The position numbers and the translations under genes were made by a program. Source: Petrosia ficiformis (lineage: Eukaryota; Porifera; Demospongiae; Haplosclerida; Petrosiidae). Taken from it: 64,000 nt of DNA. The notes under the pieces were generated by a model that worked only from the letters and a program-made list of their open reading frames with translations, was not told the DNA's origin and made no database searches. Positions 38,275-38,696 of this stretch are shown here, one piece after another (the stretch's first letter is position 1; the number at the start of each line of letters is the position of its first letter). The DNA is taken from assembly GCA_947044365.1 (NCBI GenBank), contig OX345636.1, positions 16,975,115-17,039,114 of the forward strand. Direction: 5' to 3'.

Positions 38275-38696
38275 TCACTGTTCTTCGCTTGTTTGCAAAC
38301 AATCTCCAACTTCAATGCTAATTGGATTAGTAGCTTTCATTTGAATATAATCACTTTGTTTGCTATGAGTAGATATATTATCTTCATTCCCTTTATCAGT
38401 GAAAGGCTCAAGAGTCAGTGGGCGTGACCTGTTAGGTGGTGGCAAGGGTACTTGTCCTTCTGTACAACTTAAACTTTCATAGTTCTCATTTTCAGGCAAT
38501 TGTTGTAAAGATTCGTATATTGGGTCTTTTGTCAACTTCAGCTCACTTCCGAGTTTGTCTTCTAAGTCCATGCATTCTGGATAATAGTTTTTGTCATAGT
38601 CATTCAATTGTATAGGTGTTTCTGTAAACTGAAATCTCCTTTTCAGCCTCCTTTTCCAGATAGTAACCACGATTAGAATCAAAATTACAATTGATA
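38275..38696 (-). CDS. Gene 3 last exon: end of TM helix and ITAM signalling tail
   Basis: Codes for SIVILILIVVTIW, a basic stop-transfer (KRRLKRR) and about 120 cytoplasmic residues, ending in TGA. An ITAM lies at 38470-38526: D-P-I-Y-E-S-L, eight residues, Y-E-S-L, which meets the consensus [D/E]xxYxx[L/I]x6-8Yxx[L/I]. It is followed by a proline-rich PLPPPNRSRPL (possible SH3 ligand) and SDYIQM (YxxM, a p85-type SH2 site). In animals with known ITAM receptors, Src-family kinases phosphorylate both tyrosines and Syk binds through tandem SH2 domains. Whether this happens here is untested. Confidence 0.88.

What the first reader, a model, noticed from the sequence alone, without database searches (positions are those of the whole stretch)
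38470..38526. Textbook ITAM in the tail of a putative sponge receptor
The sequence shows DPIYESL, eight residues, YESL, followed by a proline-rich stretch and a YxxM motif, directly after a basic stop-transfer segment. ITAMs are known from vertebrate immune receptors and adaptors. One on a large EGF/CCP/Ig receptor in a probable sponge would suggest an ancient or convergent Src/Syk-coupled recognition receptor.
Basis: partly seen in the sequence, partly recalled or inferred. Interest (0 to 1): 0.88.

Follow-up and report, generated by a model that had tools for sequence, protein, structure and literature searches.

The report
ITAM on one sponge receptor branch
A sponge gene for a giant predicted surface receptor carries the paired-tyrosine motif (ITAM) of vertebrate immune receptors, which would likely recruit the sponge's own Syk kinase, but only 2 of the 13 related tail exons found in its gene array have it.

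Summary
The motif is real and exactly where it was reported: 38526-38470, minus strand, reads DPIYESL-QQLPENEN-YESL. It lies in the last exon of a giant predicted receptor: EGF/Sushi repeats, a largely unclassified 1,152-residue exon ending in two Ig domains, two Ephrin_rec-like modules, a transmembrane segment, then the tail. The spacing (x8) fits the published ITAM rule. Assembly sizes identify the genome as the sponge Petrosia ficiformis. Readers and writers of an ITAM are encoded there: a Syk gene (SH2-SH2-kinase), a Shark-type SH2-ankyrin locus, Src-family kinases and two SHP2-like loci. But the motif is not a family trait. Of 13 tail exons found in the 374-kb array, 2 have an ITAM (the window copy and a 90%-identical tail); with 24 database tails, 4 of 37. 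The others have lost one box or both, or carry YDVP/YDDP as second box; most keep a YxxM/L box and DPF/NPF motifs (the ITAM branch lacks DPF/NPF). Shuffling gives the motif in 1.3% of tails: chance is unlikely but not negligible. ITAM receptors outside vertebrates are already in print (Draper, oyster, Hydractinia). Best reading: a Syk-coupled branch of a sponge receptor array with diverging outputs. Splicing, phosphorylation and Syk binding are untested.

The parts
38470..38526 (-). ITAM DPIYESL-x8-YESL
38338..38349 (-). YIQM, the YxxM box; its tyrosine is the only tyrosine invariant in 31 aligned tails
38275..38696 (-). last exon: second half of TM helix, WKRRLKRR, cytoplasmic tail, stop TGA
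39068..39128 (-). exon with first half of TM helix (QSELNILTVIIPALIFIIIL), donor gtaagt, phase 1
39226..39317 (-). Ser/Thr-rich stalk exon (donor gtatat, kept in the neighbour copy)
39654..39821 (-). Ephrin_rec-like (GCC2/GCC3) exon
39938..40147 (-). Ephrin_rec-like exon
40288..43743 (-). 1,152-residue exon: unclassified beta domain and long coiled-coil hairpin (low-confidence model), then two Ig domains
43868..43982 (-). short exon proposed by the exon-chaining script; uncertain
44038..45467 (-). exon with one EGF-like stretch by cysteine pattern and an unclassified region
   Evidence: no Pfam match for the ORF 44005-45510
46493..63956 (-). EGF-like and Sushi exons, phase 1; the repeat continues upstream outside the window to about 68 kb
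   Evidence: Pfam EGF_CA on 3 of 3 and Sushi on 3 of 3 exon ORFs scanned; the other exons assigned by cysteine pattern
8873..17858 (+). second, divergent member of the same receptor family; 405-residue tail without an ITAM

Best explanation
The last exon encodes a canonical ITAM in the predicted cytoplasmic tail of a giant predicted sponge receptor, and it would likely be phosphorylated by Src-family kinases and then recruit the sponge's own Syk. Proposed sequence (inferred): a ligand or neighbouring cell clusters the EGF/Sushi/Ig ectodomain; one of the Src-family kinases phosphorylates both YESL boxes; the tandem SH2 domains of Syk dock on the doubly phosphorylated tail and the kinase is activated; YIQM may recruit PI3-kinase in parallel. 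Shown: motif, exon frames and splice signals, tandem array, near-restriction of the ITAM to one branch, presence of the kinase genes. Inferred: splicing, surface location, phosphorylation, Syk binding. In sister genes the second box is YDVP or YDDP, or is lost; most keep a YxxM/L box and DPF/NPF, which suggests that array members give different outputs.
For: Canonical spacing and residues. Location after TM and basic stop-transfer, in frame through splice sites kept in the neighbour copy. The ITAM is kept in 4 of 5 tails of its own branch (L001, L002, P0041, P0050; lost in P0051), with 0 of 14 replaced codons between L001 and L002 falling in the 19 ITAM codons. Syk gene with two SH2 domains and kinase exons in order; best PDB matches by sequence are SYK and ZAP-70, E 3e-36 and 9e-39 for the two SH2 pieces. 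Src-family kinase. SHP2-like loci: one full SH2-SH2-phosphatase frame closest to PTPN11, E 2e-191, a second by eye. Precedent: Src42A-Draper-Shark (PMC4503800, passages) and Megf10-Syk (PMC8092387, passages).
Against: 2 of 13 array tails and 4 of 37 tails overall carry it. Those four are close relatives, and the two from the database (P0041, P0050; 92 and 97% identical to the window tail) could be alleles, so this may be one origin. Shuffling reaches it in 1.3%, with 0.25 hits expected among 37 shuffled tails. The absence of replacements in the ITAM is not significant alone (about 0.14 if replacements fell at random; own arithmetic). No expression, phosphorylation or binding data. YESL also fits an AP-2 YxxPhi sorting signal (recalled).
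Confidence: 0.5

Rival explanations
1. The YESL boxes are YxxPhi endocytic sorting signals for AP-2, not an ITAM; with DPF and NPF motifs the tails are mainly built for internalisation, and the second YESL is incidental.
For: Box 1 fits YxxPhi in 23 of 31 aligned tails, YESF included (counted), so it is better kept than the ITAM. NPF is present in 24 of 32 and DPF in 28 of 32 tails outside the ITAM branch. That DPF, NPF and YxxPhi are endocytic motifs is recalled.
Against: In the ITAM branch DPF and NPF are absent (0 of 5 each), so there the endocytic set is reduced just where the second YxxL is present. YIQM and YDVP fit SH2 ligands better (recalled).
Confidence: 0.25
2. The exact ITAM is a chance product of drift in a tyrosine-rich, fast-changing tail; the conserved functional element is the YxxM (PI3-kinase type) box.
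For: The tyrosine of the YxxM/L box is the only tyrosine invariant in 31 tails and the YxxM box occurs three times in L011. The ITAM occurs in 1.3% of shuffles, the loose motif turns up about once per 7,000 residues of six-frame ORFs (11 in 75,512), and the motif varies from gene to gene.
Against: It is intact in 4 of 5 members of its branch, with no replacement at the Y and L positions in those four. Both box tyrosines also occur in part of the sister branch.
Confidence: 0.2
3. The ITAM-like tail is read by the Shark-type kinase or by a lone SH2 protein instead of Syk, as in Drosophila Draper.
For: An SH2-ankyrin locus of Shark type is in the genome (its second SH2 and kinase were not traced); Draper uses Shark.
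Against: A Syk gene with tandem SH2 is also present, and tandem SH2 is the best fit to two boxes at x8.
Confidence: 0.15

Closest known systems
Drosophila Draper / mammalian MEGF10
   Same: EGF-rich single-pass receptor with an ITAM, Src-family kinase and Syk/Shark partner (PMC4503800, PMC8092387, passages)
   Different: They have EMI plus EGF repeats and an NPxY; here Sushi, Ig and Ephrin_rec-like modules and no NPxY in the tail; a tandem array, whereas Draper and MEGF10 are single genes (recalled)
Botryllus fester co-receptors (FcoR)
   Same: Multigene family in one locus, Sushi plus Ig ectodomain, tails that vary between ITIM, hemITAM and a core YxxI/L/V motif (PMC12065747, passages)
   Different: FcoRs are 520-610 residues; this protein is about 4,200 residues in the (5'-incomplete) model and carries a full ITAM; no allorecognition evidence here
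Hydractinia Alr receptors
   Same: Candidate recognition genes with ITAM and ITIM motifs (as reported in PMC12065747)
   Different: IgSF receptors of a cnidarian (recalled); ectodomains not compared here
Oyster CgIgIT2
   Same: Ig receptor with a 'classic' ITAM outside vertebrates (PMC11999971, passage)
   Different: Five Ig domains, no EGF/Sushi array mentioned
Vertebrate ITAM chains (CD3 zeta, FcR gamma, DAP12, CD79)
   Same: Motif and expected Syk-family reader (features recalled)
   Different: Mostly short adaptors paired with receptors; here the ITAM is on the predicted ligand-binding chain itself

Membership tests
ITAM | YxxL/I-x6-8-YxxL/I | tested here: met
   YESL-x8-YESL; rule from PMC10008955, passages
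ITAM | cytosolic side of a membrane protein | tested here: met
   by sequence only: TM and WKRRLKRR precede the motif, splice sites in frame; topology predicted, not measured
ITAM | dual tyrosine phosphorylation and binding of a tandem-SH2 kinase | not testable with these tools
   only the genes for Syk, a Shark-type locus and Src-family kinases were found
ITAM | both boxes conserved among orthologues or paralogues | tested here: not met
   2 of 13 array tails, 4 of 37 in all; 4 of 5 within its own branch; no orthologues from named species were available
Draper/CED-1/MEGF10 | EMI domain with EGF repeats | tested here: inconclusive
   EGF-like exons present, no EMI in the exon ORFs scanned, but the 5' end of the gene was not found and not every exon was scanned
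Draper/CED-1/MEGF10 | NPxY in the tail | tested here: not met
   none in the tail sequence
   C12 locus: SH2, SH2, kinase exons with HRDLAARN and DFG, no ankyrin frame seen between the SH2 exons (by eye); SH2s closest to SYK/ZAP-70; exons not joined by transcript

The most novel reading that the evidence does not exclude
A sponge carries a tandem array of giant recognition receptors that share one ectodomain plan but swap phosphotyrosine outputs from gene to gene (Syk-type ITAM, Crk-type YDVP, PI3K-type YxxM repeats, endocytic DPF/NPF): a poriferan counterpart of the activating and modulating receptor clusters of NK and allorecognition complexes, with ITAM-Syk coupling at work in one of the oldest animal lineages.
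Probability: 0.25. Interest if true: 0.82.

Novelty: new variant of a known kind. Interest (0 to 1): 0.55.

Why it matters
Syk-family kinases in sponges are in print (PMC9486129, PMC9601881, passages), but I found no sponge ITAM receptor in the searches made. A sponge receptor with a canonical ITAM, in a genome that also has Syk, Src and SHP2-like genes, is a concrete candidate partner for sponge Syk. It makes testable whether ITAM-Syk coupling predates the split of sponges from other animals or arose again. The array also offers sister tails with one box changed, a natural comparison set.

Tried and rejected
Search for full-length sponge homologues that include a tail: 2 hits, each covering 12% of the query; the one with a source name is an HMCN1-type protein, so no tails from other named species were obtained. 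Exon-level relatives exist at 37, 34, 29 and 25% (P0015-P0018; source organisms not named), but their tails could not be linked to them.

Fold of the 1,152-residue exon: mean pLDDT 62.7, pTM 0.31; the 50 Foldseek rows listed are Ig-containing structures, so the rest of that exon stays unclassified.

Direction of change (gain or loss of the ITAM) could not be settled: the label count gives at least 3 changes under the loose definition, which cannot tell gain from loss. P0035 (YESL-x9-YDVL, sister branch) meets only the loose spacing.

A signal-peptide exon upstream of the first EGF was not found (one search printed no candidate). A genome pattern for the second box gave 31 matches against 17 in the reversed control, and its extra codon excluded the window's own form; it was dropped as uninformative.

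Rows dropped: the 31-row tail alignment left out L004, L005, L006, L009 and L010 (near copies of L003 and L008) and P0052 (short); counts of 37 include them. The 37 are not all distinct genes: P0031 and P0040 are 100% identical to L007 and L008.

Papers: searches (25 of 62 listed; 8 of 15 listed; 12 of 48 listed; 8 of 15 listed). No sponge ITAM receptor was seen in those listings or in the passages read; no paper was read whole, and subscription journals are mostly not held.

Full report
Identity. The window lies at G000:C1:16975115-17039114 of a 191.2-Mb genome. Total size, C1 (63,279,122), C3 (11,427,112) and C12 (6,113,113) match the table of the Petrosia ficiformis assembly odPetFici3.1 (191.25 Mb; 63.28, 11.43, 6.11; PMC12648040, passages; contig sizes). 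The held genome has 29 contigs and the published one 35 scaffolds. The species is inferred from these sizes.

Observation. Minus strand 38526-38470 reads DPIYESLQQLPENENYESL, that is YxxL-x8-YxxL with an acidic residue three before the first tyrosine. YIQM follows at 38349-38338. The tail follows a long hydrophobic segment (ILTVIIPALIFIIILVSIVILILIVVTI) and WKRRLKRR, with 36 residues in between. The published rule is YxxL/I-x6-8-YxxL/I (PMC10008955, passages). Shuffling the 127-residue cytoplasmic tail 200,000 times gives it in 1.3% (x6-8) or 2.9% (x6-12). The loose form with an acidic residue is found 11 times in 75,512 residues of other six-frame ORFs, one of them L002's own tail. For one tail this is beyond the usual 5% level, but the motif was picked from 64 kb.

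Gene. An exon-chaining script gives phase-1 EGF-like and Sushi exons from about 68 kb (outside the window) to 46493, an EGF plus unclassified exon (45467-44038), the 1,152-residue exon (43743-40288) with two Ig domains and two Ephrin_rec-like exons. Pfam confirms EGF_CA in 3 of 3 and Sushi in 3 of 3 repeat-exon ORFs scanned; the rest were assigned by cysteine pattern. The script missed the stalk and TM exons; I added them by hand from frame and splice signals. The splice dinucleotides of the 3' exons are kept in the neighbouring copy L002 over a 2.1-kb stretch that is 92% identical. The 5' end and a signal peptide were not found; exon 43982-43868 is uncertain.

Family. One search found 13 tails between 17.013 and 17.387 Mb on C1, all on the minus strand. 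The large exon has 42 matches in the genome (matches, not genes; a lower bound), in this array, at C1 16.7-16.99 and 9.9-10.2 Mb, at C7 2.9-3.26 Mb, and one on C17. One distant member lies in the window itself (11518-15201, plus strand, 24% identity); its 405-residue tail has NPLYQNV, YIDL and YEIA but no ITAM, and a search with it found no second copy. Tails of the other distant members were not obtained. Several array members look damaged or remodelled: L003 has one in-frame stop and L009 a break in the large exon, L008 a deletion, and no large exon was found within the 10 kb fetched for L011-L013.

Tail comparison. Of the 13, L001 (window) and L002 have the ITAM. L003-L006 have YESL and YDVP. 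L007 has YEPL and HDDP. L008-L010 lack the first tyrosine and have YDDP. L011 has YESF and CDVL. L012 has YESL and no second box. L013 has YESP and no second box. A database search with the tail profile gave 24 more tails; over all 37, 4 meet the strict rule and 5 the loose one. A pattern covering DPIYES[LFPS] finds 8 places in the whole genome, all in this array, with 0 in the reversed control. In a tree built without the ITAM columns the ITAM branch (L001, L002, P0041, P0050, P0051) is separated at 100/100 support; in the tree of the large exon, which holds 9 of the 13 array genes, L001+L002 also stand apart at 100/100. The tyrosine of the YxxM/L box is the only one invariant in 31 tails. 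DPF occurs in 28 of 32 and NPF in 24 of 32 tails outside the ITAM branch and in 0 of 5 inside it. These rows are relatives, so the contrast is one or a few events, not 37.

Selection. L001 and L002 differ by 15 replacement and 8 silent nucleotide changes over 145 codons, dN/dS 0.45; none of the 14 replaced codons is in the 19-codon ITAM, which is not significant alone.

Partners. One search reports 63 SH2 matches; 30 were cut out as loci, and those I read are. C12 5.530-5.538 Mb holds two SH2 exons and kinase exons in order, closest to SYK/ZAP-70 (for one short kinase exon the first PDB row is a construct named EGFR, then ZAP-70 and SYK). C3 3.233 Mb holds SH2 plus ankyrin, the Shark arrangement (second SH2 and kinase not traced). 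L014 is closest to Src (E 6e-154), and further frames look Src-like by eye. One locus is an SH2-SH2-phosphatase closest to PTPN11 (E 2e-191), and a second looks alike by eye. Sponge Syk itself is already in print.

Interpretation. The best reading is a Syk-coupled receptor branch inside an array with diverging outputs. It would work like Draper, MEGF10 or FcoR signalling, but it is not filed as a member of those families: the tail has no NPxY, and the EMI test is inconclusive. Main rivals are a sorting-signal reading of YESL and drift in a tyrosine-rich tail whose conserved element is YxxM. The claims of antiquity and of family-wide ITAM use are not supported by these data. That YDVP suits Crk-type SH2 domains, YxxM PI3-kinase, and DPF/NPF endocytic adaptors is recalled, not tested.

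Noticed in passing
window 8873-17858 +: Divergent member of the same receptor family in opposite orientation, with EGF/Sushi exons, Ig exon and a 405-residue tail carrying NPxY and a repeated DDEKTPLLTTPDSETVEPNQQVANEIVSN unit.
   Followed up: partly
window 24159-32276 -: Single open frame of 2,705 residues: many ankyrin repeats, then a Roc GTPase-like stretch (Pfam Roc E 9e-6, 26.3 bits, just under its 27-bit cut-off).
   Followed up: partly
window 21042-22460 +: 473-residue tyrosine-recombinase-like ORF (DUF3504 and Phage_integrase), a likely mobile element between the two receptor genes.
   Followed up: no
L011 tail (G000:C1:17131023-17131427 and downstream): The YIPM-plus-NPF unit occurs three times; L007 has two YxxM and three NPF.
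   Followed up: partly
G000:C16:744-768 kb and C18:3.165-3.180 Mb: Small clusters of SH2-kinase open frames; the three read in the C18 cluster look like Src-family kinases, and the two read on C16 have HRN in place of HRD at the catalytic loop.
   Followed up: no
window 40283-43780 -, residues 225-558 of the frame: Predicted long coiled-coil hairpin with a Cys-rich tip between a beta domain and the Ig domains; low-confidence model, unclassified.
   Followed up: partly
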